From Aspidapion aeneum (lineage: Eukaryota; Arthropoda; Insecta; Coleoptera; Brentidae): a stretch of DNA of 64,000 nucleotides. Under the pieces are notes generated by a model. The model ran no database searches, was not told where the DNA came from, and saw nothing but the letters and a program-made list of their open reading frames with translations. Below are positions 6,431 through 63,801 of the stretch, in pieces. A program made the position numbers and the translations under genes. Position 1 is the stretch's first letter, and every line of letters starts with the position of its first letter. The stretch covers positions 4,470,501 through 4,534,500 of the forward strand of contig OY755048.1 of NCBI GenBank assembly GCA_963576565.1, read 5' to 3'.

Positions 6431-6776
6431 CAAAATTTGATTACATACATACATACCCACATACATAAATCGGTCTAGGACAACTGGGCGCCGCCAACTC
6501 GGCGCCGCCAACTGGGCGCCGCCAACTCGGCGCCGCCAACTGGGCGCCGCCAACTCGGCGCCGCCAGCTGGGCGCCGGACCAACTGGGCGCCGGACCAAC
6601 TGGGCGCCGGGCCAACTCGGCGCCGCCAACTGGGCGCCGGCCAACTCGGCGCCGGACTAAAAATTTGTTTTTGATAAAATGTGTAGATGAAAAATAAAAT
6701 AATTTATTTATATAAAAACATCTTTAAAAAATCCTTTACTAACTAACTAACTATCTATCAAATCTTGTGAAGCGTT

Positions 6777-7546
6777 TTTAACACACTTCCCATTATCCGA
6801 TTTGGATGAAATTTAATACACACGTAGTGGTCCCATGACAATACAACACTAAGAAAAAAATAACCTACCACCCCTACCCCCACCCCTTCTATAGAAAAAT
6901 GTGTTTTTGACACACTTCCCGTTATCCGATTTGGATAAAATTTGGTATACACATAGTGGTCCGATAATAATACAACAATAAGAAAAAAATATCCTCCCAC
7001 CCCTACCACCACCCCCTTCCATAGAAAAATTTGTTTTTGACACACATCCCGTTATCCGATTTGGATGAAATTTGGTATACATATAGTGATCTGATGACAA
7101 TACAATATTAAGAAAAAAAATATCCTCCCACCTCTACCCCCACCCCCTTTAATAGAAAAATGAGTTTTTGACACACTTCCCATTATCCGATTTGGATGAA
7201 ATTTGGTATTCACATAGTGGTCCAATGACAATACAACATTAAAAAAAATATATCCTCCCACCCCTACCCCCACCCCCTTCCATAGAAAATGCGTTTTTGA
7301 CACCCTTCCCATTATCCGATTTGGATGAAATTTGGTATACATATAGTGATCCGATGACAATACAATATTAAGAAAAAAATATCCTCCCACCTCTACCCCC
7401 ACCTCCTTTCATAGAAAAATGAGTTTTTGAAACACTTCCCATTATCCGATTTGGATGAAATTTGGTATTCACATAGTGGTCCGATGATAATACAACATTT
7501 AAAAAAAATATCCTCCCACCCCTACCCCCACCCTCTTCCATAGAAA
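6777..7546 (-). repeat. Left array of the 130-bp repeat
   Basis: About six tandem units, each with the core CCGATTTGGATGAAATTTGG followed by a variable TATACACATAGTGGTCC part and a C-rich CCTACCCCCACCCC block. They are oriented opposite to the units at 7945-9112. Units differ by a few substitutions and small indels. Confidence 0.85.
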
Positions 7547-7944
7547 ATTCAAATAAATTAGTAAAAAAATTTCTTTTAAGTCACAAGCTTTCATAAAATG
7601 CACTAAAAATTAAAAAATAATTTTCTAACATTCTAATATTATCATAATAATAAAAGCGATGGCCGACTGATGGAAATTTTGAGGATGTTAGCACGATAAG
7701 ATATCCGTATCAATTAAATATTACTATTTGCAAGAATCAATCTAGCAGAAAAATGCAGAGGTAAATAAATAAAGAAGAGTTTATTCTGGATTATAATGAA
7801 ATCGCTGATCGTAAGTTGTTTGGAAACTCATTTTTCTATTGGGGGAAGGAGAGGGTGGGGGTAGAGGTAGAAATATATTTTTTGTTTGGGCTGTATTGAC
7901 ATCGGACCTTTATGCATATATCAAATTTTATAAAAGTTATTTGA

Positions 7945-9112
7945 AGTGAAGTGTGTCAAAAACGCATTTTTTATGGAAGGGGGTGGGGGGTGGGGGTGGG
8001 AGGACATTTTTTCATTATTGTTGTATTGTTATCGGACCACTATATGTATACCAAATTTCATCCAAATCGGATAATGGGAAGGGTGTCAAAAACGCATTTT
8101 CCATGGAAGGGGGTGGGGGTAGGGGCGGGAGGATATTTTTTTAAATGTTGTATTGTCATCGGACCACTATGTGAATACCAAATTTCATCCAAATCGGATA
8201 ATGGGAAGTGTGTAAAAAACTCATTTTTCTATGAAAGGGGGTGGGGGTAGAGGTGGGAGGATATTTTTTTCTTAATATTGTATTGTCATCGGATCACGAT
8301 ATGTATACCAAATTTCATCCAAATCGGATAACGGGATGTGTGTCAAAAACAAATTTTTCTATGGAAGGGGGTGGGGGTAGGGGTGGGAGGATATTTTTTC
8401 TTATTGTTGTATTATCATCGGACCACTGTGTGTATACCAAATTTTATCCAAATCGGATAACGGGAAGTGTGTCAAAAACACATTTTTCGATAGAAGGGGT
8501 GGGGGTAGGGGTGGGAGGATATTTTTTTCTTAATGTTGTATTGTCATCAGACCACTATGTGAATACCAAGTTTCATCCAAATCGGATAATGGGAAGTGTG
8601 TTAAAAACTCATTTTTCTATGAAAGGGGGTGGGGGTAGAGGTGGGAGGATATTTTTTTATTATATATGTATACCAAATTTCATCCAAATCGGATAACGGG
8701 ATATGTGTCAAAAACAAATTTTTCTATGGAAGGGCGTGGGGGTAGGGGTGGGAGGATATTTTTTTCTTATTGTTGTATTATTATCGGACCACTATGTGTA
8801 TACCAAATTTTATCCAAATCGGATAACGGGAAGTGTGTCAAAAACACATTTTTCTATAGAAGGGGTGGGGGTAGGGGTGGGAGGATATTTTTTTCTTATT
8901 GTTGTATTATCATCGGACCACTATGTGTATACCAAATTTTATCCAAATCAGATGAAGGGTAGTGTGTCAAAAACAAATTTTTCTATGGAAGGGGGTGGGG
9001 GTAGGGGGTGGGAGGATATTTTTTCTTAATGTTGTATTGTCATGGGACCACTATGTGTGTACCAAATTTCATCCAAATCGGATAATGGGAAGTGTGTCAA
9101 AAACGCTTCACA
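7945..9112 (+). repeat. Right array of the 130-bp repeat
   Basis: About nine tandem units, reading CCAAATTTCATCCAAATCGG, then a GTGTGTCAAAAAC stretch, then GGGGGTGGGGGTAGGGGTGG. One unit (around 8655) has an internal deletion. The unequal copy number in the two arms fits local array slippage after formation of the inverted structure. Confidence 0.85.
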
Positions 9113-9522
9113 AGATTTGATAGATAGTTAGTTAGTTAGACAGAACATCTGAAGCTAAATATAAGCTTGTAAAAAATTGCGTAGGATTTTTTAAAGATGT
9201 TTTTATATAAATAATATATTTTATTTTTCATCTACACATTTGGTCAAAAAAAATTTTTTTAGTCCGGCGCCGAGTTGGCCGGCGCCCAGTTGGCGGCGCC
9301 GAGATGGCCCGGCGCCCAGTTGGCCCGGCGCCCAGTTGGCGGCGCCGAGTTGGCGGCGCCCAGTTGGCGGCGCCGAGTTGGCGGCGCCCAGTTGTCCCAT
9401 TCCGTACATAAATACATACATACATACATACAGGTGAAGTTAAATACAAGCTTGTAATAAAAAAATATGAATACTCTACGGTTTTGACCATTTAGAGAAA
9501 AACAGATAATTTTAAATAGAGA

Positions 9523-10439: not shown

Positions 10440-11160
10440 TAGCTCACACTACTACTATACTATATTAGTGTGAGCTATTGTGATCCTAATTTTGTCGAGA
10501 AAAAAAAAGTTGCACCGATTTCAAAAATTTATATATATCTTTGCGTTTCAGATGATTTTGAAACTTTTTTGTCGCGCCGTCTGTGTGTCCGTCTGTCTGT
10601 CTGTCTGTAACGACCAACGCGCATAACTCAAAAACCGCTTGCCTGATTGGAATGAAATTTGGTGCCTAGGCTGGGTTTTGGGTGGAGATCGTCAAATTTA
10701 GAAATGAACAAAATCCACCGAACGCAAGTCAAATGAAAGGGTGGGGGTAGATTCTAAAAATTAGAGTTTATGTGAAAATATAGCGTGTGTGATATTAAAC
10801 GAAAGGTAATTGAGTTTGGAGTTAAACAAAATACATTTTAGTTTATTTTAAGAAAAAAGGTGGAGGCAGATTTCAAAAATTAGAGTTTAAGTGAAAATAT
10901 GCCGTGTGTGATATCAAACGAAAGGTAATTGAGTCTGGAGTTAAACAAAATACATTTTAGTTTAAAAAAAACGGTGGGGGTAGATTTTAAAAATTAGAAT
11001 TTAAGTCAAAACATGGCTTGTGTGATATCAAACAAAAGGGAATTGAGTCTGGATTTGTATAAAACATATTTCAGTTTTTAGTTATATTAGCTCAAATGTA
11101 CGCTATAACTATAGTAGATATAGCGTGAGCTTAGGTGCCCATATTTTGGCAGAGTATTTT
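10440..11160 (+). mobile_element. Helentron/DINE-like element, copy A (short microsatellite)
   Basis: Begins with a palindrome AGCTCAC...GTGAGCT, followed by a conserved lead and a short TCTG-type microsatellite (about 10580-10609). Next come the conserved AACGACCAACGCGCATAACT block and about three tandem copies of a ~115-bp unit containing GTGTGATATCAAACGAAAGG. It ends with a second palindromic GTGAGC block and the terminal GGCAGAGTATTTT. This layout (subterminal palindromes, central TCTG microsatellite, no TIR) resembles DINE-1/Helentron-associated elements; the family assignment is an inference. Confidence 0.65.
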
Positions 11161-13589: not shown

Positions 13590-14665
13590 AGCCAAGTTTA
13601 GAAAAACATTTCCAAACTAGTAAGAACCTTTCATTTTAAAATTTATATTGGAGAACTTGGCTTTACTTTTATCTTAATTCTTTTTACGGAATGACATTTT
13701 CGCGTACTTGGCTTTTTTTATATGAAATGTTTTTGTTACGATTTCACTTCTTTTTTAAAGGAATTGAATAATAATTAATTTTTAAAGTAGTAAATTATGC
13801 AGAATATTGTTCAAAAGTGTTGCAATGCCTTATTTAAAATTTTAAAGATTTTTTCCCATGGTTTTATCATAGTTCCTATCAGTCTTCCAAAGCTTAGCTC
13901 TCTAACGTTTCTAGAAGTAGGCAATGTTTCTTTCACATAACTTTAAATTTATAGGGCAGGAGAGTAAAGAGTAAATTAAAATTTTGGGCTTTTTGAATTT
14001 TTTCCCATGGTGTTATCAATGTTACTTTTATATAGCTCTACATTTATAGGAAAGGGAAGTAAATTAAAATGTTGGTGTTTTTAAATTTTTTCCTATAGTT
14101 TAATCATAATGCCTTTCAGTCTTAAGAAGCTCAGCTCTCTAGCGTTTCTGGAAGTGGGCAGTGTTACTTTTACATAACTTCACATTCATAGGGGAGGGAA
14201 ATAAATTAGAATTTTGGGGTATTTTAATTTTTTTCTATAGTTTTATCATAGTTTCTATCGGCCTTTCAAAGCTCAGCTCTCTAGCGCTTCTGGAAGTGGG
14301 CAATGTTAATTTTACATAACTTTACATGTATAGGGGAGGGGAGTAAATTAGAATTTTGGGCTTTTTTGATTTTTTCGAAGGGTTTCATCATAATTTCTAT
14401 CAGTGTGCCAAATGTCAGCTTTGTAGCATGTCTGGAAGTACAGTAGAATTTTGATGATCTATATATGAGTGAGTGAGTCAGTGGCAATTTCGACGTTTTT
14501 TGAAATTTCGTAACTATTTTACTATTTTATGGAAGTCCATGAAACTTAGAGGTGTTGTTATATCTATGGAGATTTACGACTGTGCAAAGTTTGAGATTCG
14601 TAGTTCATTGCAAAGTAGAATTTTAGATAGGTTAAATATGGGCTGAAATGTTTCAAGAACACAGA
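13590..14665. repeat. Dispersed composite repeat with internal ~140-bp tandem units, copy 1
   Basis: Starts with a block containing CCAAGTTTAGAAAAACATTT and CGCGTACTTGGCTTTTTT. It continues as about four to five tandem units containing CTCAGCTCTCTAGCG then GAAGTGGGCAATGTTA. It ends with GTGAGTGAGTCAGTGGCAAT and a block containing GGGCTGAAATGTTTCAAGAA. The same order, inverted, recurs at 45190-46680, which defines a family. There is no convincing ORF. Confidence 0.75.
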
Positions 14666-26394: not shown

Positions 26395-26927
26395 AACCGA
26401 TAAATATATATAAGCACGGATCATAAGGTGATCCGTGCATAAAGCTCCCAAAAGCACTAAAATTTTATGACTGATTCTGAAGCGCCCTATCAACTGTTTA
26501 AGACATATATCATGTTGCAAAACCTTGATAAGATTAAGTAAAAAAGTCAGTTATCGTGTTTTTTGCATTTGAATTTTCAAGATCATTTGAGGTTTGATGA
26601 CTTAAAAATTAATTTTTTGAAATCTTCAATATCGAATTATATAGAAACGATCATCACCACATCATTTTAATGATTTTTCGTATTAAAGTAATGTTTTTAA
26701 TAATCATGCTTGTACTTATAAAAGCCACTTTTTTTGTAACTTATTTAAGTACAAAACAACACCTTGATACTCCTTTTTCAAAAGTTTAAAAGTAAAATGC
26801 TGGAAAAACTAGAGGAAAGTTTCTTTCTTAGTAATTTTTTTCTCAAAACTTTGTTCGGATTCATTAGAATTTTAAGTTTATCGCCCTAAATATAATATAT
26901 AATCGCGCCAGGTTGTGAATCGTCAAT

Positions 26928-29780
<2,853 letters not shown>

Positions 29781-29849
29781 AAACGTTCAGTTTTTAAATC
29801 TACTCGTATGTTGTATATTAAAAATTCAAAATTTTGGTAAATAATTAGT

Positions 29850-30502
29850 GCAGGCGCTGGAGGTAGTTGAGTTTACAAAATATGAGGAGCGCAGTTTAAC
29901 AATTGAATCTAGCAGAAAATCGGTCACAAATTAACGATCAGGATGTTGCGAAGCCAGTTTTTCGTCCAATTTATTTTTATCCCCCCTCCTCTTATAGTCG
30001 TGTTTGAATTTCTGAAAAGTTGTCGCCCTAAAGCCACAATGACACAGAAATGCATAAAAAATGTGTAAAATCTAACCTAAAAATAAAATTATATTAGGTT
30101 TTTAAATTTTAGCTGAAAAAACCCCTAAAAACCCCTCAGACCCCCAAAACCTAAAACTAAGAAAAATATGTATTTACCTTTATTGTAGATAATAAAATTT
30201 TCTTTTTATCTATGTACAACTCAGCGGGGCACGACCAATGACAAACTTTGTAATGTAAAAAAATATAAAAAAATTATTTTTTATTACCAGTTTTACCCGA
30301 TTTTCTTAAACACCAAGCTTTCACAACACATTTTAGCTCACACATATACTATACTATAGTAGTGTGAGCTTTGGTGATCCTAATTTTTTCGAGAAAAAAA
30401 AATTGCTCCGATTTCAAAAATTTTTATATATCTTTGCGTTTCAGATGATTTTGAAACTTTTTTGTTGCGCCGTCTGTCTGTCTGTCTGTCGGTCTGTCTG
30501 TA

Positions 30503-30545
<43 letters not shown>

Positions 30546-32480
30546 ATGTCTGTAACGACCAACGCGCATAACTCAAAAACCGCTTGGCCGATTTTAATGA
30601 AATTTGGTACCTAGGCTGGGTCTTGGGTCGAGATGGTCCCATTTAAAAATGAACAAAATCCACCGAACAGAAACCAAGTAAAAGGGTGGGGGTAGATTTC
30701 AAAAATTAGAGTTTATGTGAAAATATGGCGTGTGTGATATCAAACGAAAGGTAATTGAGTCTGCAGTTAAACAAAATACATTTTAATTTATTTAAAAAAA
30801 AAGGGTGGGGGTATATTTTAAAAATTAGAGTTTAAGTGAAAATATGGCGTGTGTGATATCAAACGAAAGGTAATTGAGTCCGGAGTTTAACAAAATACAT
30901 TTTAGTTTTTTGTTTTTTTTAAGGGTGGGGGTAGATTTCAAAAATTTGAGTTTAAGTCAAAACATGGCTTGTGTGGTATCAAACATAAGGTAATTTAGTC
31001 TGGAGTTAAATAAAATATATTTCAGTTTTTAGTTATATTAGCTCACACGTACACTATAACTATAGTACCTAGTGTGAGCTTAGGGGCCCATATATTGGCA
31101 GAGTATTTTCAATTGAGCTTAGTTTCTGAGCCAATTGGATAAAACCTTAAAAAAATTAATTTGTATGATGATTTGTAAAAATTGATTTCATTTACGGACG
31201 CTTTTGAAGTTTTAATCTGAAAATAAATATTACTTTGTGGTATAGTTTTTGCAAAGTCAGTTGAACAAAGATAAAAGCCGACCATCGGCATATCCTTTAT
31301 AGAAAGTGACATGGGCGGCGGTAGATATACTCATGAAAATTATTTCATTTAATGATGGCGTAAACTAAAGAAATAAAAATAGATAATAAAACTTTCTATT
31401 CCTACACCTACAGGAACGACACTGATTTATTTTCTAACTCTGCATACTGCCGACTAATGGGGTTCCGAAAAGCACACCCGAAAGCAATTAAAAGCGAATC
31501 TCAAAAAAATCTGCCAATCAGGTGCCGTCCATCCACCTGGGCTCGGTCGGTCGGAAAACAAATACTTTGTGGTCGGACCGCAAAGAGCTGCGCCTCTTCT
31601 CTGTCGGTAGGGTTGAAATTATACCAGGAAGATTTTATATGAATTTGGAACTTTTGAAGGGCAGAATGAAGCAAAATTTCATGAAATCGATAGAACCCCT
31701 TAACCGAAGTGACTTTGCAAAAACTATACAGCGTTTAAAAGAAAATTTCATTGTCTAGACACACAATTTTTGATAATCGGGTAAAACTTGTGACAAACAT
31801 GTGGTTTTTTTGCGCTGGAAAGTTTGGTATTAGTCTGACCGCACTGACTTATACATTGTTGAAAAGCGAATTTTATTTTCTACAACATAATGTAAAATAA
31901 TTGTTTTTCCAAAAAGCTTAGTTTTATTAAACTAATCTTGTCTTGTTATACACCATTTAAAAGAAAATTTCATTGTCTAAAATCGACTAAAGGACACAAT
32001 TTTTGATAGAGAGCTTAGTTTTTAAGGTAAAACCGGTAATATAACCTGTTTCTTTTTTTTTCATTTTTTTACATTATCTCACCTACTGACTTATACATAT
32101 ACATTGTTAAAAAGGAGATTTCGTTTTCTATAATAAAGGTAATGACATATTTTTCCCTAAGAAGCTTAATTTTTAAGAAAATTTGAAGGAAACTAAAAAT
32201 CTTAGGCTTTGGGGGATCGGGGGGGTTTTTGGAGGTTTTTTCAGCCAAAATTTAACATTATTTTTTTTTAGGTTAGATCTTACACATTTTTAAATTATTT
32301 CTCTGTCATTGTGGCTTTAGAGCGGCAACTTAGGTAAATTTTCAGATATTCAAACACGAGTATAAGAGGAGAGGGGATAAAAAAAATTGGACCAAAACCT
32401 GGCTTGGCAACATCCAGATCATTAATCTGTGACCTATTCTCATCTAGAATCCATTGTCAAACTGCGGTCCTCATATAAGA
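29850..32480. repeat. Inverted repeat pair flanking a Helentron-like copy
   Basis: A block at 29850-30160 (with CACGACTATAAGAGG-type and GCCACAATGACA words) reappears inverted at about 32210-32480 (TATAAGAGGAGAGGGG, GTCATTGTGGCTTTAGAGC). Copy C lies between them. The 31110-32210 part contains further short inverted words (AAAGAAAATTTCATTGTCTA repeated near 31738 and 31960) and no gene I can name. An open frame at 31522-31758 has no recognisable domain. Confidence 0.6.
30334..31109 (+). mobile_element. Helentron/DINE-like element, copy C
   Basis: Complete copy. The opening palindrome is at 30334-30370, an interrupted TCTG microsatellite at about 30472-30553, and the AACGACCAACGCGCATAACT block follows. 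Three ~115-bp units contain GTGATATCAAACGAAAGG. The closing palindrome GCTCACACGTACACT...AGTGTGAGC and terminal GGCAGAGTATTTT end the copy. It faces copy B head to head across a 553-bp spacer. Confidence 0.7.
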
Positions 32481-35404: not shown

Positions 35405-36862
35405 TTTCACGGGCAAGACCTCAGAGGTAAAAGTAGTTACGGGGACGCGTTTCTGCCTCATTAGGCTTCATTCAGCCCGAGCATAACCATAAAATGGAAG
35501 GAGATGAAATAATGATGTGGGTAACTGAAAAAGAAATATGAAATATAGTGTTTACTGAGGAGATACCAACTGTCAATTTGCAGCTTCGGTCAGGGTTGCC
35601 TCGGTTTGGAGGCTAATTTTGACGTCGCGACGGAGACAGATATAATCTGCTCCCAGAAAACAGCCTGAGCCCTGGATTTTTTTAAATTTGAAGGAAGTTC
35701 ACGAGATATAAAGTCTTAACAAAAAGTTTCACGGACAAGACCTCAGAGGTAAAGGTAGCTACGGTGACGCGTTTCTGCCTCATTAGGCTTCATTCAGCCC
35801 GAGCATAACCATAAAATGGAAGGAGATGAAATGATGATGTGGGTAACTGAAAATGAAATATGAAATATGGTGTTTACTGAGGAGAGACCAACTGTCAATT
35901 TGCAGCTTCGGTCAGGGTTGCCTCGGCTTTGAGGCTAATTTTGACGTCGCGACGGAGACAGATATAATCTGCTCCCAGAAAACAGCCTGAGCCCTGGATT
36001 TTTTTAAATTTGAAGGAAGTTCACGAGGTATAAAGTCTTAACAAAAAGTTTCACGGGCAAGACCTCAGAGGTAAAGGTAGCTACGGGGACGCGTTTCTGC
36101 CTCATTAGGCTTCATTCAGCCCGAGCATAACCATAAAATGGGAGGAGATGAAATGATGATGTGGGTAACTGAAAAAGAAATATGAAATATGGTGTTTATT
36201 GAGGAGAGACCAACTGTCAATTTGCAGCTTCGGTCAGGGTTGCCTCGGTTTTGAGGCTAATTTTGACGTCGCGACGGAGACAGATATAATCTGCTCCCAG
36301 AAAACAGCCTGAGCCCTGGATTTTTTTAAATTTGAAGGAAGTTCACGAGGTATAAAGTCTTAACAAAAAGTTTCACGGGCAAGACCTCAGAGGTAAAGGT
36401 AGCTACGGGGACGCGTTTCTGCCTCATTAGGCTTCATTCAGCCCGAGCATAACCATAAAATGGGAGGAGATGAAATGATGATGTGGGTAACTGAAAAAGA
36501 AATATGAAATATGGCGTTTATTGAGGAGAGACCAACTGTCAATTTGCAGCTTCGGTCAGGGTTGCCTCGGTTTTGAGGCTAATTTTGACGTCGCGACGGA
36601 GACAGATATAATCTGCTCCCAGAAAACAGCCTGAGCCCTGAATTTTTTTAAATTTGAAGGAAGTTCACGAGGTATAAAGGCCGAGGCAACCCCGAACAAA
36701 GCTGCAAATTGACAGTTTCTTTTTCAGTTACCCACATCATCATTTCATCTCCTTCCATTTTATGGTTATGCTCGGGCTGAATGAAGCCTAATGAGGCAGA
36801 AACGCTTCCCCGTAGCTACCTTCACCTCTGAGGTCTTGTCCGTGAAACTTTTTTGTTAAGAC
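35405..36862. repeat. 322-bp satellite-like array closed by an inverted partial unit
   Basis: Four units begin TTTCACGGGCAAGACCTCAG at 35405, 35727, 36049 and 36371, exactly 322 bp apart and nearly identical. The fourth stops near 36679 and is followed by an inverted partial unit (GCCGAGGCAACC... to CTTGTCCGTGAAACTTTT at 36679-36862). The block therefore begins and ends with inverted copies of the same edge. No ORF. High identity implies recent amplification or homogenisation. Confidence 0.9.
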
Positions 36863-38213
36863 TTAAATTTATCTCAATATGATTTTTCAAGAGACAACAT
36901 TTTTTTTCTGTATAATTTCCCTGTGCGCTCTTTTACTATGTAAGGTTTTTTCTTTACGCGCTTTTTTATCCGTGCTTTTCTCGGCGTGCTCTTTTTTCTG
37001 TGATGGACTTTTCTCCTGTGCAAATATTTATTTTTCTCTTTTTCCCTGCGCGCTTATTTAATAACTATTATTAAATTTCATAAACCTTTAAAAATTACTA
37101 AAATTTTTATTATTTCTAGTATATGTTTTAAAATTTTAACTATAACAAAATTTAGTTTAGAACCCCTTATGATTTTCGTGTAAGCCTCATTATTATTCAA
37201 GGAGCATAAATGGGCCATTAGACTGTTAATATTCAAAATTTACACTGGTAGAACCTAAAATAATAAGTGATTTGTATATTTTATCACAACCTAACTTATC
37301 CAGGGTCGGTTTTGACCAAACACCCCCAAAATTCTCGAAAATTGTAAAAACGTTGCAATTTTTCGTGCAAACACAAAAAATGCAAAAACGCTACAAATCG
37401 CGAAAAATTGAAACTAAATAATCTTAAAAAGTTTTTGAATGATGTCAAAGGTTGCTTTTTGCGAAGCAGTCAAATTATACTCAATTTTTTCTAAACTGTC
37501 TTTTTAATCTAATGTAAATAATTTTTTTTCGTTTCCACAATTTACTTAAAATTTATTGTTATGTTTGTTTGCATTCGCCGGCTTGGAAACATATATACAT
37601 AGATAGAAATGTCTGTATTCTTTATGTTAAGTTTTTTCTCTGTGCGCTTTTTTCCGGATGCGCTATTTTTCCTGTGTGCTTAGTTCCGTGATTTTGATAA
37701 AGCAAGTCAACAAAAATATTATATTTATCAGCCTTTAACTTTTATGTAGTACATACCAGCCTTTAAACCCTATATATTTTTTTGGGACTGGCTCTGGGGG
37801 GAATTGCCCCCTTTAACCCCCCCCCCCTGGAGAACCGCAGGAGATTATAGGTGACCCATTGTTAGTGTTTTTATAGGTTTTATACTACCCAATCAAGTAA
37901 CTAATATCTTATTTTCTGGTATTTATCAATCCTTATTTTATTTCATTACAATGATTCTTAAAAATCAGTTGTTTAGTAGACCACAAATGAAAAAAAAATG
38001 GGCAAAATCCAAAACTGCGGCAAAATGGTTGAAATCGTAACTCTAAAACTATTAGTCTGTCAAAAAACATATATAAAAAATATTCTTTTTTTGTAAATTT
38101 TATTGGCCATAATTTGTGTTTTAAACCTTTTTTACACAACCTTCAGAAACCAAGGTATTTTAAAAAAACTGAATAATGGTGCCACGTTTCAATACTTTTA
38201 AACTTTTTGCATC

Positions 38214-45189: not shown

Positions 45190-46680
45190 AAGGGCACGGC
45201 AGTGCCTCGCCAAGTTCGCGCGCCATAACCATTCTTGAAACATTTCAGCCGATATTTGACCTACCTAAAACTCTACTTCGGAATGGGCTACGAATCTCAA
45301 ACACAGTCGTAGATCTCCATGGAGTTAACAACCCCTCCAAGTTTTATGGAATTCCATAAAGTAGTAAAGTAGTTACGAAATTTCAAAAAACGTCGAATTT
45401 GCCACTCACTCACTCACTCACTCACTCATGTATAGATCATCAATATTCTACTGTACTTAGACTGATAGAAATTATGACCAAACCCCTGGAAAAAATCAAA
45501 AAACTCAAAAATTCCAATTTACTTCCCTCCCCTATAAATGTAAAGTTAAGTAAAAGTAACATTGCCTACTTCCAGACATGCTAGAGAGCTGAGCTTTGGA
45601 AGACTGATAGTAACTATGATAAAGTTATAGAAAAAAATTAAAACACCCCAAAATTCTAATTTACTTCCTTCCCCCATAAATGTAAATTTATTTAAAAGTA
45701 ACACTGCCCACTTCCACAAACGCTAGAGAGCTGAACTTTTTAAGACTGAAAGACAATATGATAAAACTATATGAAAAAATTTTAAAACACCAACATTTTA
45801 ATTTACTTCCCTCTCCTATAAATCTAAATTTACATAAAACTAACATTGCCCACTTCCAGAAACGCTAGAGAGCTGAGCATTGGAATGCTGATAGAAATTA
45901 TGATAAAACCATGGGAAAATATCCCCTATAAATGTAAAGTTATGTAAAAGTAACATTACCCACTTCCAGAAACGCTAGAGAGCTGAGCATTAGAAGACTG
46001 ATAGGAACTATGATAAAACTATAGGACAAAATTTAAAAAGACGACAATTTTAATTTATTTCCCTTCCCTATACATGTAAAGTTATTAAAATTAACGTTGT
46101 GCACTTTCAGAAACGCTAGAGAGCTGAGATTTGGAAGGCTGATAGGAACTACGATAAAACCATGGAAAAAAATTAAAAACCTCAAAAATTTAAGTAAGGC
46201 ATTGCAAAAGTTTTGAACAATATTCCGCATATTTTACTACTTTAAAAATTAAGTATTATCCAATTCCTTTATAAAAGAAGTGAAATCATAACAAAAACAT
46301 TTCATGTAAAAAAAAGCCAAGTACGCGAAAATGATGGCATTCCGTAAAAAGAATTGAGATAAAAGTAAATCCAAGTCCTTCAATACAAATTTCAAAATGA
46401 AAGGTTCTTACTAGTTTGGAAATATTTTTCTAAACTTGGCTATTAGGGCGGTAAATGACTCTTAGGCACAGTGCTAAATTGAACATAAAGAAGTTTGGCT
46501 ATAATAGCAAAGTTTAAAAAAACATTTTCAAACTAGTAAGAACCTTTCATTTTAAAATTTGTATTGGAGAACTTAGCTGTACTTTTATCTCAATTCTTTT
46601 TACGGAATGCCATCATTTTCGCGTACTTGGCTTTTTTTTACATGAAATGTTTTTGTTATGTATAACTTTGTTTCCTAGTT
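45190..46680. repeat. Composite repeat, copy 2 (inverted relative to 13590-14665)
   Basis: Contains, in reverse order, the CTTGAAACATTTCAGCC block, a GCCACTCACTCACTCACTCA microsatellite (expanded relative to copy 1), five to six ~140-bp units with CTAGAGAGCTGAGC, and the AAGTACGCGAAAATG block. A further forward piece with the CCAAACTAGTAAGAACC-type edge follows at 46500-46680. This shows two opposed edges at the right. Confidence 0.75.
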
Positions 46681-57700: not shown

Positions 57701-57953
57701 TAAACACAAAAACATTTTAATAATGTCAAAATAATGTTTAATTTAAAAACTTTGTTTGAAACTCGTAGACAATGTACAAATTGTGAAAGGCTTTCGCGGT
57801 CATCGTCCAATGGTGGGTGTGCTTTCGGGCTGTTCGGCCGTCGTCGTTGGAAATTCGTTCTCGACGTTTCGCCATCTCGAGTGGATGGCATCTTCAGGAG
57901 ATGTTGACTGTTTGTCGGCTTCTCGAAGACTGGTGGTTCGTCTGTCGCAACTC

Positions 57954-59732
57954 GCACGCACAGACAAGGAACTACTCTCAATTTTCTATCACCTAGCCAA
58001 CACCATGCACAAATCAGACTGGGACAAAATTGATGCTATTTCATACAGATCCATGGAAAACGAACACCACAGAAGTACGGAGAGGCAGAAAACCAAATAC
58101 CAGAGACTAACTGACGACAACAATAAACGGGATAACCAGCAGCCCATCCTTGATTCTACAAAAACTGTCATCAACCTATCGGACCGCCCGCTTTCTCAAA
58201 ATTAAGTCTCAGTACTCTCTAAGGGGGGGAAATTTGCTGTTGCACCTAGGGAGGTTCCCAAGGAGGAAATAATTGCCAACTTAGAATCTGCTATTAGAAA
58301 GTTGCCCGAAGATCAGGCAGAAGAAATACGCATGGAGTGTTCACAGATTTTGCGAAAAGCCAAACCACCGAAACGCAACATTACAAGGATGGAAGAAAAA
58401 GCCATTAAGGATCTCAACAAAGACGAAAACATTCTGATACTGCCTGCCGACAAAGGAACTGTAGTATTGAACAGGGATGACTACAACAGAAAGATGGTCG
58501 ATCTTTTAGAACCCTCAACATACAAGAAGCTAAAAAGAGATCCTACACAACCCACAATTAAAAAAGTGAATCACTTAATTAAGATTTCTTCATTGGAGGA
58601 CCCAGTGAAGAAGATGCTATGCCAAAGTGAAGCCCTGACTCCGAGATTGTATGGACTACCAAAAATCCACAAAAACGATGTGCCTCTTCGTCCCATTGTC
58701 AGTACTATAGGCTCACCAACATACAAACTTGCGAAACATCTTGCTTCCCTCTTGCAACCCCACATCGGACTAACGGATTCGTATGTAAGAGACTCCACCC
58801 ACTTTATTGAGAAGATCAAAAACATCGTCATGGACGAGAAAGACATCTTAGTTAGCTTTGATGTTGTGTCTTTGTTCACGATGGTACCTTTGGCCGAGGC
58901 AATGAGGGAAGTGGAACACATTTTTCCGAAGGACATCACCGACCTATTTAAAATCTGCCTAACGACATCATATTTCACCTTCAATGAACAAATTTATGAA
59001 CAGATCGATGGAGTATCAATGGGTAGCCCTTTATCGCCAGTGATTGCGAACTTTTTCATGGAGAAACTAGAAGAGAAGGCGTTGAATAATGCCCCTCATA
59101 AACCCAAAGTCTGGTTTCGATATGTAGATGACACTTTTGTCGTTTGGCCTTATGGTAGAGACGACCTTAATGAATTTCTCAACCACATTAACAGCATACA
59201 CCCCAGTATACAATTTACAATGGAAGAAGGGAACAACAGAGAATTAGCATTCCTTGACGTACTAGTAACGAGGAAAGAGGGACGACTAGGACATACCGTA
59301 TACAGAAAACCTACTCACACAGACCGCTACCTAAACAACACATCTAACCACCACCCGTGCCAACGAAAAGGGGTAATAAGAACATTGGTAGAGAGGGCGA
59401 AAAGAATCTGCGAACCAGAACATCTAGACAAAGAATTAAACCATCTTAAAAACGCCCTCGTAGCAAATAGATACACTCAAAGCGACATAGATAAATGTAT
59501 ACGACCAAAGCCGAGCACTAGAAGTAACAGTAGCGGTGGACTGAGCAGCCGCGAAGTTACTTCAAGAGCCTTTCTGCCCTACATCCCTAGAGTGACAGAT
59601 AGGATCGGACGTATTCTGGGAAAACACAACATAAAAACGATCTTCAAGCCATCTAAGAAGATCGAGAACCACCTCAGATCTGCGAAGGATATAAGGAACC
59701 CACTAAGTTCTTCGGGGGTATACCGCATTCCC
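57954..59732 (+). pseudogene. Penelope-like reverse transcriptase, N-terminal and RT domains
   Basis: Frame open apart from one TAA (58203-58205) that separates an N-terminal stretch (SQLARTDKELLSIFYHL..., VINLSDRPLS) from the main part (VLSKGGKFAVAPREVP onward). RT blocks: ENILILPADKGTVVLNRDDY, LYGLPKIHKNDVPLRPIVS, motif A VSFDVVSLFTMVP, motif B GVSMGSPLSPVIANFFME, motif C RYVDDTFVVW, and the Penelope-specific FLDVLV...VYRKPTHTDRYLN with HHP..R..V..TL..RA. The true coding part ends at SSGVYRIP (59732). The 20 codons after it (MSMKLAKHPSQIESGLGG) come from the inserted element. The start codon is not determined. Confidence 0.92.
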
Positions 59733-61840
59733 ATGAGCATGAAGTTAGCGAAGCACCCATCGCAGATCGAATCGGGACTAGGTGGATAATTTGCCGTTAA
59801 TTAGTCGTGAATTAGTTTTGTCGCTCTTATTTTTGACCGTTTTTGAGGGTGCTTCGCTAACTTCATATGAAGTTAGCGAAGCACCCTCGTAAAAATGGCT
59901 TTTATCAAAATCGAATATGGTGGATAATTTGCCGCTAATTAGTCGTGAATTAGTTGTGGAAAAATTAATTTTGTCGCTCTTATTTTTGACCGTTTTTGAG
60001 GGTGCTTCGCTAACTTCATATGAAGTTAGCGAAGCACCCTCGTAAAAATGGCTTTTATCAAAATCGAATATGGTGGATAATTTGCCGCTAATTAGTCGTG
60101 AATTAGTTGTGGAAAAATTAAATTTGTCGCTCTTATTTTTTACCCTTTTTTTGGGTGCTTCGCTAACTTCATATTTTGGCACCCATCGCAAATCGAATCG
60201 CTACTAGGTGGATAATTTGCCGTTAATTAGTCGTGAATTAGTTGTGGAAAAATTAATTTTGTCGCTCTTATTTTTGACCGTTTTTGAGGGTGCTTCGCTA
60301 ACTTCATATGAAGTTAGCGAAGCACTCTCGTAAAAATAGCTTTTATCAAAATCGAATATGATGGATAATTTGCCGCTAATTAGTCGTGAATTAGTTGTGG
60401 AAAAATTAATTTTGTCACTCTTATTTTTGACCCTTTTTTGGGTACTTCGCTAACTTCATATGAAGTTAGCGAAGCACCCTCGTAAAAATGGCTTTTATCA
60501 AAATCGAATATGCTGGATAATTTGCCGCTAATTAGTCGTGAATTAGTTGTGGAAAAATTAATTTTGTCGCTCTTTTTTTTTACCGTTTTTTGTGTGCTTC
60601 GCTTAATTCATATAAAGTTAGAGAGGCACCAAAAAAACACTCAAAACTAAACGCGACAAACTTAATTTTTCCACAACTAATTACCGACTAATTAGCGGCA
60701 AATTATCCACCATATTCGATTTCGATACGTCATGTCTAAAGCCATTTTTACGAAGGTGCTTCGCTAACTTTATATGAAGTTAGCGAAGCACCCTCAAAAA
60801 CGGTCAAAAATAAGAGCGACAAAATTAATTTTTCCACAACTAATTCACGACTAATTAGCGGCAAATTATCCACCATATTCGATTTTGATAAAAGCTATTT
60901 TTACGAGGGTGCTTCGCTAACTTCATATGAAGTTAGCGAAGCACCCAAAAAAAAGGTCAAAAATAAGAGCGACAAAATTAATTTTTCCACAACTTATTCA
61001 CGACTAATTAACGGCAAATTATCCACCATATTCGATTTTGATAAAAGTCATTTTTACAAGGGTGCTTCGCTAACTTCATATGAAGTTAGCGAAGCACCCT
61101 CAAAAACGGTCAAAAATAAGAGCGACGAAATTAATTTTTCCACAACTAATTCACGACTAATTAGCGGCAAATTATCCACCATATTCGATTTTGATAAAAG
61201 CTATTTTTACGAGGGTGCTTCGCGAACTTCATATGAAGTTAGCGAAGCACCCAAAAAAAGGGTCAAAAATAAGAGCGACAAAATTAATTTTTCCTCAACT
61301 AATTCACGACTAATTAGCGGCAAATTATCCACCATATTCGATTTTGATAAAAGCTATTTTTACGAGGGTGCTTCGCGAACTTCATATGAAGTTAGCGAAG
61401 CACCCAAAAAAAGGGTCAAAAATAAGAGCGACAAAATTAATTTTTCCACAACTAATTCACGACTAATTAGCGGCAAATTATCCACCATATTCGATTTTGA
61501 TAAAAGCCATTTTTACGAGGGTGCTTCGCTAACTTCATATGAAGTTAGCGAAGCACCCTCAAAAACGGTCAAAAATAAGAGCGACAAAATTAATTTTTCC
61601 ACAACTAATTCACGACTAATTAGCGGCAAATTATTCACCATATTCGATTTTGATAAAAGCCATTTTTACGAGGGTGCTTCGCTAACTTCATATGAAGTTA
61701 GCGAAGCACCCTCAAAAACGGTCAAAAATAAGAGCGACAAAATTAATTTTTCCACAACTAATTCACGACTAATTAACGGCAAATTATCCACCTAGTCCGG
61801 ATTCGATTTGCGATGGTTGCTTTGCTAACTTCATGCTCAT
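59733..61840. mobile_element. Foldback element of ~153-bp palindrome-separated units
   Basis: Bounded by the 9-bp duplication CGCATTCCC (59724-59732 and 61841-61849). The outer ends are inverted: ATGAGCATGAAGTTAGCGAA... with a CGCAGATCGAATC...ACTAGGTGGATAATTTGCCG continuation on both sides. The interior is about a dozen units. The left part (to about 60600) and right part are in opposite orientation, and units are separated by a palindrome. No ORF with a domain: a repeated 51-codon frame on the minus strand is a by-product of the 153-bp period. Long inverted arms made of tandem subunits and a 9-bp duplication match the layout of Drosophila FB foldback elements. Confidence 0.9.
59845..61713. 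repeat. Series of 44-bp palindromes at ~153-bp spacing
   Basis: The half-site GGGTGCTTCGCTAACTTCAT is followed directly by its complement. At 59845-59888 the palindrome with flanking GA/TC is 44 bp and perfect. Others begin near 59998, 60286, 60437, 60752, 60905, 61058, 61211, 61364, 61517 and 61670, with zero to a few mismatches, and a degenerate one marks the centre near 60600. The half-site equals the terminal sequence of the whole element, so each palindrome looks like two element ends joined back to back. Confidence 0.92.
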
Positions 61841-61849
61841 CGCATTCCC

Positions 61850-62083
61850 TGTACCTGTGGAATTGTCTACATCGGAACAACCAAACGGTCCGTAAACACA
61901 AGAATCAAAGAACACAAAGCCAACTGTCGACTCGGACATACGGAAAAATCTGCAGTTGCAGACCACACACTAAACAATGAAGACCACCGAATAAAATTCG
62001 AAGACACACAAGTTCTCTGCGCCTCCTCTTCATACTATCCAAGACTCAATAGAGAAGCAATCGAAATTCATAAACACCAGTAG
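61850..62083 (+). pseudogene. GIY-YIG endonuclease domain of the Penelope-like element
   Basis: Continues the frame broken at 59732: CTCGIVYIGTTKRSVNTRIK, EHKANCRLGHTEKSAVADH, then IKFEDTQVLCASSSYYPRLN and REAIEIHKHQ followed by TAG. The 'C.CG..YIG.T.R....R..EH' core with the conserved Arg, the Glu of NREAIEI and HH/CC residues is that of Penelope GIY-YIG nucleases, which nick target DNA. The motif straddles the insertion: its 'GVY' strand lies before the insert and 'YIG' after it. The TAG precedes NFNRSEETLKINRTW, which looks like the usual continuation. Confidence 0.88.
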
Positions 62084-62299
62084 AACTTCAACAGATCTGA
62101 AGAAACTCTTAAAATTAACAGAACATGGGTACCGGTTCTTAAAAACACTAAACGGCTCGCTTACAATAACAAAACTGAATCAAGGGAATGTGACCAATCA
62201 CCGACCAGCTCTGATATACGCCCCGCCCACCATAGCGTATATAACCTGCGTCCGCGACAGACTAACCACCAGTCTTCGAGAAGCCGACAAACAGTCAAC

Positions 62300-62340
62300 A
62301 TCTCCTGAAGATGCCATCCACTCGAGATGGCGAAACGTCG
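62300..62340 (+). ncRNA. Hammerhead-ribozyme-like core in the Penelope-like terminal repeat
   Basis: CTGAAGA (62305-62311) fits the CUGANGA core. A stem GCCATC/GATGGC (62313-62318 with 62326-62331) closes a 7-nt loop, and GAAA (62332-62335) then CGTC follow. One extra T between core and stem departs from the textbook minimal motif. Hammerhead motifs are known in the terminal repeats of Penelope-like elements. An inverted copy of the same sequence is in the 5' repeat (about 57862-57902), and another in the solo repeat at 63617-63801. Activity is not shown. Confidence 0.55.
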
Positions 62341-62459
62341 AGAACGAATTTCCAACGACGACGGCCGAACAGCCCGAAAGCACACCCACCATTCGTAGAC
62401 AATGATTGTGTAGAAATAAAATTTCGGACTTCCATTGTCTTTATTTATTTTAAAACATG

Positions 62460-63616: not shown

Positions 63617-63801
63617 GTGGTGGGTGTGCTTTCGGGCTGTTCGGCCGTCGTCGTTGGAAATTCGTTCTCGACGTTTCGCCATCTCGAGTGGATGGCATCT
63701 TCAGGAGATGTTGACTGTTTGTCGGCTTCTCGAAGACTGGTGACGTCGAAAACGAATTTCCAACGACGACGGCCGAACAGCCCGAAAGCACACCCACCAT
63801 T
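63617..63801. mobile_element. Solo Penelope-like terminal repeat folded on itself
   Basis: Starts with the same 120-odd bp as the 5' terminal repeat at 57810 (GGTGGGTGTGCTTTCGGGCT...). After GACTGGTGACGTCG it immediately returns as an inverted copy of the first 60 bp, ending ...AAAGCACACCCACCAT. No coding part remains. The interior contains a hammerhead-like core on the minus strand. Confidence 0.8.

What the first reader, a model, noticed from the sequence alone, without database searches (positions are those of the whole stretch)
59733..61840. A foldback element whose ~153-bp units are joined by 44-bp palindromes, inserted exactly between RT and GIY-YIG
Seen: 9-bp duplication CGCATTCCC, inverted outer ends, about a dozen ~153-bp units that reverse orientation near 60600, and a palindrome at each unit joint whose half-site equals the element terminus. 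Each unit therefore looks like a short TIR element, and the array like many such elements joined end to end. Known: FB-type foldback elements have long inverted arms of subrepeats and 9-bp duplications. Inferred: the array grew by end-joining or replication of a MITE-sized unit, perhaps mobilised by a Mutator- or FB-like transposase. Such dense cruciform-forming DNA should be unstable.
Basis: partly seen in the sequence, partly recalled or inferred. Interest (0 to 1): 0.8.

Follow-up and report, generated by a model that had tools for sequence, protein, structure and literature searches.

The report
Mobile hairpin DNA with palindromic joints
A stretch of jumping DNA, built of repeated units that point inward from both ends, has landed inside another mobile element; it belongs to a large family that spread through this genome as ready-made hairpins rather than as single small units.

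Summary
Window 59733-61840 is a 2108-bp foldback element flanked by a perfect 9-bp duplication, built of 14 units of mostly ~153 bp that reverse at 60611/60612. Other copies of the interrupted Penelope-like element show the uninterrupted site. The family is large: 1276 exact 23-base outer ends, reversed control 0. Of 30 delimited copies (308-2677 bp), 21 have perfect and 5 one-mismatch 9-bp duplications; 4 have none at 9 bp. It is a non-autonomous foldback DNA transposon.

Joints lack the outermost hexamer ATGAGC (0 internal ends against 127 exact joints). Unjoined left ends of the 153-bp unit number 5 against 1312 joined. Unit subtypes share one order, so a pre-formed hairpin spread and changed by whole units. 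One single-unit copy (155 bp) with a one-mismatch duplication exists. One arm has expanded to 25 consecutive units.

No autonomous partner was found; a Mutator-type transposase is an inference from duplication length and known relatives. Joints built as back-to-back copies of the end-site are the unusual part.

The parts
59733..61840 (.). Whole foldback element, 2108 bp
   Evidence: Inverted ends ATGAGC...GCTCAT and perfect 9-bp flanking duplication; empty sites in other copies of the host element
59724..59732 (+). Target-site duplication CGCATTCCC, left copy
61841..61849 (+). Target-site duplication CGCATTCCC, right copy
59733..59866 (+). Left terminal unit T (ATGAGC + 20-bp half-site + terminal-specific stretch + body); 134 bp here against a 149-bp consensus
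59867..60019 (+). I unit, subtype Ib, 153 bp
60020..60172 (+). I unit, subtype Ia, first half of the 288-bp compound X
60173..60307 (+). t: internal, degenerate terminal-type unit, second half of X; its left joint is not a palindrome
60308..60459 (+). I unit, subtype Ia, 152 bp
60460..60611 (+). I unit, subtype Ic, next to the centre, 152 bp
60612..60773 (-). Central diverged unit C, 162 bp; orientation flips at its left edge
60774..61691 (-). Right arm: six inverted I units of 153 bp (subtypes b a b a a b)
61692..61840 (-). Right terminal unit T, 149 bp
58302..59732 (+). Reverse-transcriptase part of the interrupted Penelope-like element
   Evidence: PF00078 E 8.4e-14; homologues
61850..62080 (+). 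GIY-YIG part of the same Penelope-like element
   Evidence: PF01541 E 0.0004, 21.1 bits against a 22.6-bit cut-off; continuous frame with flanks joined

Best explanation
A non-autonomous foldback-type DNA transposon that moves as one pre-formed hairpin. Shown: the ends are ATGAGC plus a 20-bp half-site (ATGAAGTTAGCGAAGCACCC) plus a terminal-specific stretch; insertion makes a 9-bp duplication; the arms are tandem units joined by two half-sites back to back; unit order around a diverged centre is shared between copies; copies differ by whole units. Inferred: a transposase supplied in trans, most likely of the Mutator (MULE) group, recognises ATGAGC plus half-site at both ends, cuts there and inserts the whole hairpin. 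Internal half-sites, lacking ATGAGC, would be extra binding sites rather than normal cutting sites. Because each joint repeats the same 20 bp, deletions and duplications between half-sites give copies of many lengths and, rarely, termini in which an internal half-site carries ATGAGC. Now and then an arm expands in place into a satellite-like array.
For: 1276 exact ends, control 0. 28 facing pairs among the first 100 listed ends, no back-to-back adjacent pair within 10 kb. 9-bp duplications: 21 of 30 perfect, 5 of 30 with one mismatch; of four further copies read from two loci each, 3 perfect and 1 with one mismatch. Empty site: 5 of 10 matches cover the whole joined 163-base query at 98-100% identity. 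Shared order: 11 of 11 Ic units adjoin a C unit, against 35 of 84 I units overall; in 22 copies with one C, the neighbour on its own side is Ib in 15 and on the other side Ic in 9. Units of one copy are not more alike than units overall (94.7 against 94.8%; 310 of 500 label shuffles reach it). L036, two units, 308 bp, perfect duplication, fits a half-site deletion. L010, 25 consecutive inverted I units, 99 of 325 I-unit pairs of that locus identical.
Against: No autonomous partner or transposase is linked to these ends. 4 of 30 copies lack a 9-bp duplication (L009, which has an 8-bp match in A/T-rich sequence; L026; L034; L037). The order is not strict: 13 of 22 one-C copies do not have Ic on the other side of C and 7 of 22 do not have Ib on its own side. 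No clear excess of conservation at half-sites over the unit body was seen, so their use as binding sites rests on analogy.
Confidence: 0.8

Rival explanations
1. One reading: each 153-bp unit is a small TIR element that moved by itself; arrays are many such elements joined end to end or replicated unit by unit.
For: Unit ends are inverted copies of one 20-bp half-site; one single-unit copy, 155 bp with a one-mismatch 9-bp duplication, exists on C10.
Against: 0 internal ATGAGC ends against 127 exact joints in 30 copies; 5 unjoined against 1312 joined left ends of I units, of which one was read as a decayed joint and one as a terminus with ATGAGC; shared unit order.
Confidence: 0.08
2. Same anatomy, but the mobiliser is not a MULE: a P-superfamily (Galileo-like) or other transposase.
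For: Galileo, a P-superfamily element, has foldback arms with repeats that bind its transposase (PMC3688188 passages), so foldback form does not mark a superfamily.
Against: 9-bp duplications fit MULEs (8-11 bp) and Rehavkus (9 bp) (PMC6446971 passages) and Tm1 (PMC3169594 abstract); a passage on Galileo copies speaks of 7-bp flanking sequences. P-type transposases were not searched for here.
Confidence: 0.25
3. A satellite array or an assembly artefact rather than a transposon.
For: Tandem ~153-bp periodicity; one locus with 25 consecutive units.
Against: Fixed ends with exact 9-bp duplications at many unlinked places, uninterrupted sites, and the same centre in independent copies. Raw reads were not available.
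Confidence: 0.02

Closest known systems
Tetris, foldback transposon of Drosophila virilis (PMC4079207; abstract and sections 10 and 19 read)
   Same: Non-autonomous; long inverted arms with tandem repeats (~220 bp) of varying number; 8-10 bp duplications; repeats that grow into satellite arrays.
   Different: Here 153-bp units, each joint a back-to-back pair of the end half-site, no separate long middle domain, and over a thousand exact ends. No joint palindromes are mentioned in the sections read; the word is counted 0 times for that paper.
Tm1, Mutator/Foldback family of root-knot nematodes (PMC3169594; abstract, part 2 of the Results and section 9 read)
   Same: Foldback-like ends of variable repeat number; 9-bp duplications; mostly non-autonomous copies.
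   Different: 14-bp repeats, low copy number, one transposase-bearing copy known (Phantom-like MULE); here no such copy found.
Galileo (P superfamily; PMC3688188 and PMC3573991, passages only)
   Same: Long internally repetitive ends; array length differs between copies; repeats bind transposase in vitro.
   Different: 7-bp flanking sequences in the passage seen; the word palindrom is absent from both main texts.
Rehavkus and other MULEs (PMC6446971, passages)
   Same: 9-bp duplications, arthropod hosts, minisatellite beside the end.
   Different: Encode a transposase; ends were not compared with ours.
FB elements of Drosophila melanogaster (recalled)
   Same: Long inverted arms of subrepeats, 9-bp duplications (recalled).
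   Different: Short direct subrepeats (recalled); here 153-bp units with palindromic joints.

Membership tests
Foldback-type DNA transposon (structural class) | Long inverted arms made of tandem subrepeats | tested here: met
Foldback-type DNA transposon (structural class) | Mobility: dispersed copies with target duplications and empty sites | tested here: met
Foldback-type DNA transposon (structural class) | Arm length varies between copies by whole repeats | tested here: met
Mutator-like elements (MULE), including Phantom and Rehavkus | 8-11 bp target duplication | tested here: met
   9 bp in 21 of 30 copies exactly and 5 of 30 with one mismatch; family range from PMC6446971 passages
Mutator-like elements (MULE), including Phantom and Rehavkus | MULE-type transposase between, or acting on, these ends | tested here: inconclusive
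   76 MULE-domain matches in the genome, 27 with open frames over 350 aa; the 4 on C1 below 99.1 Mb have none of the 100 listed ends within 10 kb; other contigs could not be compared
P superfamily (Galileo-like) | 7-bp flanking duplication | tested here: not met
   Duplication is 9 bp; 7 bp from a passage of PMC3573991
P superfamily (Galileo-like) | THAP-bearing P-type transposase | not tested
   No search made
   0 internal ATGAGC ends against 127 exact joints in 30 copies

The most novel reading that the evidence does not exclude
The back-to-back half-sites at the joints are real, low-efficiency transposon ends: the transposase can pair or cut there, so that the element trims, extends and re-ends itself during transposition. 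That would explain the length series, the copies in which an internal half-site has become a terminus, the single-unit copy and the expanded arm as products of one transposase-driven process rather than ordinary recombination.
Probability: 0.15. Interest if true: 0.65.

Novelty: new variant of a known kind. Interest (0 to 1): 0.42.

Why it matters
Foldback elements are known, but how their arms grow and shrink is open. Here a large, recently active family keeps a readable record: unit subtypes in a shared order, termini that fit deletions between identical 20-bp half-sites, and an arm turning into a satellite-like array. The end-site is repeated as an inverted pair at most joints, which makes the suggestion that arm repeats are extra transposase-binding sites directly testable. 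Such elements also put dense, hairpin-prone DNA at many places of one genome, relevant to breakage and rearrangement.

Tried and rejected
Coding capacity: the 153-bp unit is 51 codons and open in one frame of the minus strand. Only 2 of 66 units of exactly 153 bp have a stop there, but silent and amino-acid-changing differences (32 and 134) show no excess of silent ones over other frames, so no constraint on a protein is seen. The 22 'stop' changes counted there are base differences scored one at a time; I take them to be parts of the multi-base Ia variant.

Half-site conservation: divergence windows along the unit show no clear excess of conservation at half-sites; some T ends were also chosen for exact matches. 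Not used as evidence.

Target preference: none beyond weak A/T richness in 30 sites.

Autonomous partner: sought by MULE domain, by ends with non-standard interiors (15 places; the filter passes about 24% of unrelated interiors and shows 31 bases) and by comparing coordinates; not found. Viral contigs: 0 exact matches to the 30-base joint core. 0 held papers contain the half-site letters. Other paper searches; no listing pointed to a foldback with palindromic joints, but I read parts of six papers only, Tm1 holds the word stem palindrom once (not looked up), and most subscription papers are not held.

L025: the right end and its flank recur about 1.4 kb further on, with a breakpoint at a joint dyad. 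It looks like a local duplication and was not counted as a second copy.

Rows dropped before the count of 30 copies: the two candidate pairs in L048 (ends with 2-3 mismatches, duplications 7-8 mismatched), the pair in L015 that spans two elements, the long pair L025b, L002, L004, L007, L008 (same places as L009, L011, L014, L015), L033, L038, L047, L050, L052, L054 (same elements as neighbours), and loci with only one recognised end or none. In unit statistics, segments of odd length were left out: one search used 84 I, 41 of 59 T, 29 of 35 X and 26 C; 8 unclassified.

Full report
Anatomy. Window 59733-61840 is bounded by ATGAGCATGAAGTTAGCGAA and its inverse (right copy one mismatch) and by CGCATTCCC on both sides. 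Cutting at the joints gives segments of 134 (T), 153 (I), 288 (I+t), 152 (I), 152 (I), 162 (C, inverted), six of 153 (I, inverted) and 149 (T, inverted), that is 14 units. The orientation flips at 60611/60612. Of 13 joints, 4 are perfect 44-bp palindromes, 11 including these have at most 3 of 22 pairs mismatched, the centre has 7, and the I/t joint is not a palindrome.

Host site. The element interrupts a Penelope-like element between its RT part (PF00078) and its GIY-YIG part (PF01541, E 0.0004, below the curated cut-off). With the flanks joined and one duplication copy kept, the frame runs 554 codons through both parts. Of six homologues read, four (P0001, P0003, P0007, P0008) carry YRIPC[TS]CG uninterrupted; P0033 is diverged there and P0009 lacks it. 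The joined 163-base query gives 10 matches in the own genome: 5 over the full length at 98-100% (two at 100%), one over 20-163 and one over 69-161 that also span the junction, and three that do not, the window's own copy among them. The RT stretch is 98% identical to 39 of the 40 other near full-length places and 97% to one; only 40 of 1269 candidates were scored, so closer copies may exist. The Penelope-like copy is thus young, and the foldback insertion in it younger still.

Family. The exact 23-base end occurs 657 + 619 times, control 0. Of the first 100 places (all on C1), 28 facing pairs of 328-2886 bp were found; adjacent back-to-back pairs within 10 kb: 0; same-strand: 2. In loci L001-L058, 30 copies with both ends were delimited (308-2677 bp): 21 perfect 9-bp duplications, 5 with one mismatch, 4 without; of these L009 has an 8-bp match. 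Four more copies read from two loci each: 3 perfect, 1 with one mismatch. The loci came either from the best unit matches (40 of 824 candidates scored) or from the first 30 exact ends on C1, so they are not a random sample.

Units and order. Consensus units share a body and the right half-site; T differs in its outer stretch, C has an extra stretch and is more diverged. Subtypes Ia, Ib and Ic were defined by recurrent differences. 11 of 11 Ic units adjoin a C unit, against 35 of 84 I units overall. In 22 copies with one C, the neighbour on its own side is Ib in 15 and on the other side Ic in 9. I units of one copy are not more alike (94.7%) than I units overall (94.8%); 310 of 500 label shuffles reach the observed value; for T units 175 of 500. 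So the arrays were, as a rule, not built separately in each copy. The internal t unit looks like an old terminal unit now inside the arm, which suggests outward growth in the ancestor (inference).

Are units mobile alone? Joints lack ATGAGC: 0 internal ends against 127 exact joints in 30 copies. Genome-wide, the exact 32-base left end of an I unit is preceded by CAT 1312 times and by three bases all different from CAT 5 times (that filter would pass 27 of 64 random flanks). Of the 5, L059 is a decayed joint inside an array, L060 is a terminus with ATGAGC, and three lie about 162 bp apart at one place on C3 and were not read. Internal half-sites that have become termini: L036 (T plus one I, 308 bp, perfect duplication), L060, L062 (followed by a t-type unit), and a single T-type unit of 155 bp at C10:18745901-18746055, whose far end has one mismatch and whose 9-bp duplication has one mismatch. 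Exact matches to the right-end type number 4; one search lists 15 ends with odd interiors, some of this kind and others T ends with small changes. The four read differ from one another, as expected from separate deletions between identical 20-bp half-sites; transposase action is not excluded.

Expanded arm. L010, whose left end is missing, holds 25 consecutive inverted I units (24 of 153 bp, one of 152); 99 of 325 pairs of I units of that locus are identical, while the other 14 loci with at least 4 I units show 0 or 1 identical pair. This resembles Tetris, whose repeats seeded satellite arrays (PMC4079207, abstract).

Mechanism and class. Shown: precise insertion with 9-bp duplication and dispersal of whole hairpins. 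Inferred: a transposase acting in trans. The 9-bp size fits Mutator-like elements (8-11 bp) and Rehavkus (9 bp) (PMC6446971 passages) and Tm1 (PMC3169594 abstract). There are 76 MULE-domain matches in the genome, 27 with reported open frames over 350 aa, but none could be tied to these ends: the 4 on C1 below 99.1 Mb have no listed end within 10 kb, and other contigs could not be compared. Work on Galileo shows that repeats in long ends can bind transposase (PMC3688188 passages); that the joints do so here is untested.

Organism. Named relatives of the Penelope-like RT include weevil, other beetle, spider, lizard and other proteins, so an arthropod, perhaps a beetle, is only an inference.

Verdict. 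A real, large, recently active foldback family with an unusual joint design; a new variant of a known kind.

Noticed in passing
window 6481-9394: A second foldback-like structure: inverted arms (6523-7547 against 8355-9394, 86%) that begin with ~14-bp CAACTGGGCGCCG repeats and hold ~129-bp subrepeats. No flanking duplication was evident by eye.
   Followed up: partly
window 26923-31116: Inverted arms (26923-27553 against 30472-31116, 95%) with 118/119-bp subrepeats around a 2.2-kb ACAG array; a related single copy lies at 10440-11160.
   Followed up: no
window 13590-14659 and 45232-46658: Two inverted relatives with ~142-bp subrepeats.
   Followed up: no
window 35405-36679: Four tandem copies of a 322-bp unit, 98% matching, with partial inverted copies at 36716-36864.
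   Followed up: no
window 57809-57948, 62254-62393, 63618-63742: Nearly identical 125-140 bp pieces around the Penelope-like element, the middle one inverted (99-100%); perhaps its own end repeats.
   Followed up: no
L010:4439-8956: A copy, truncated on the left, whose one arm has expanded to 25 consecutive units.
   Followed up: partly
L025:5625-7061: The right end and flank of a copy recur about 1.4 kb on, with a breakpoint at a joint dyad, enclosing unrelated sequence.
   Followed up: no
L013:7900-8210: A decayed relative of the family next to another copy.
   Followed up: no
window 59778-60191, minus strand: The 153-bp unit is open in one frame, giving a repeating 51-residue reading; no sign of constraint.
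   Followed up: yes
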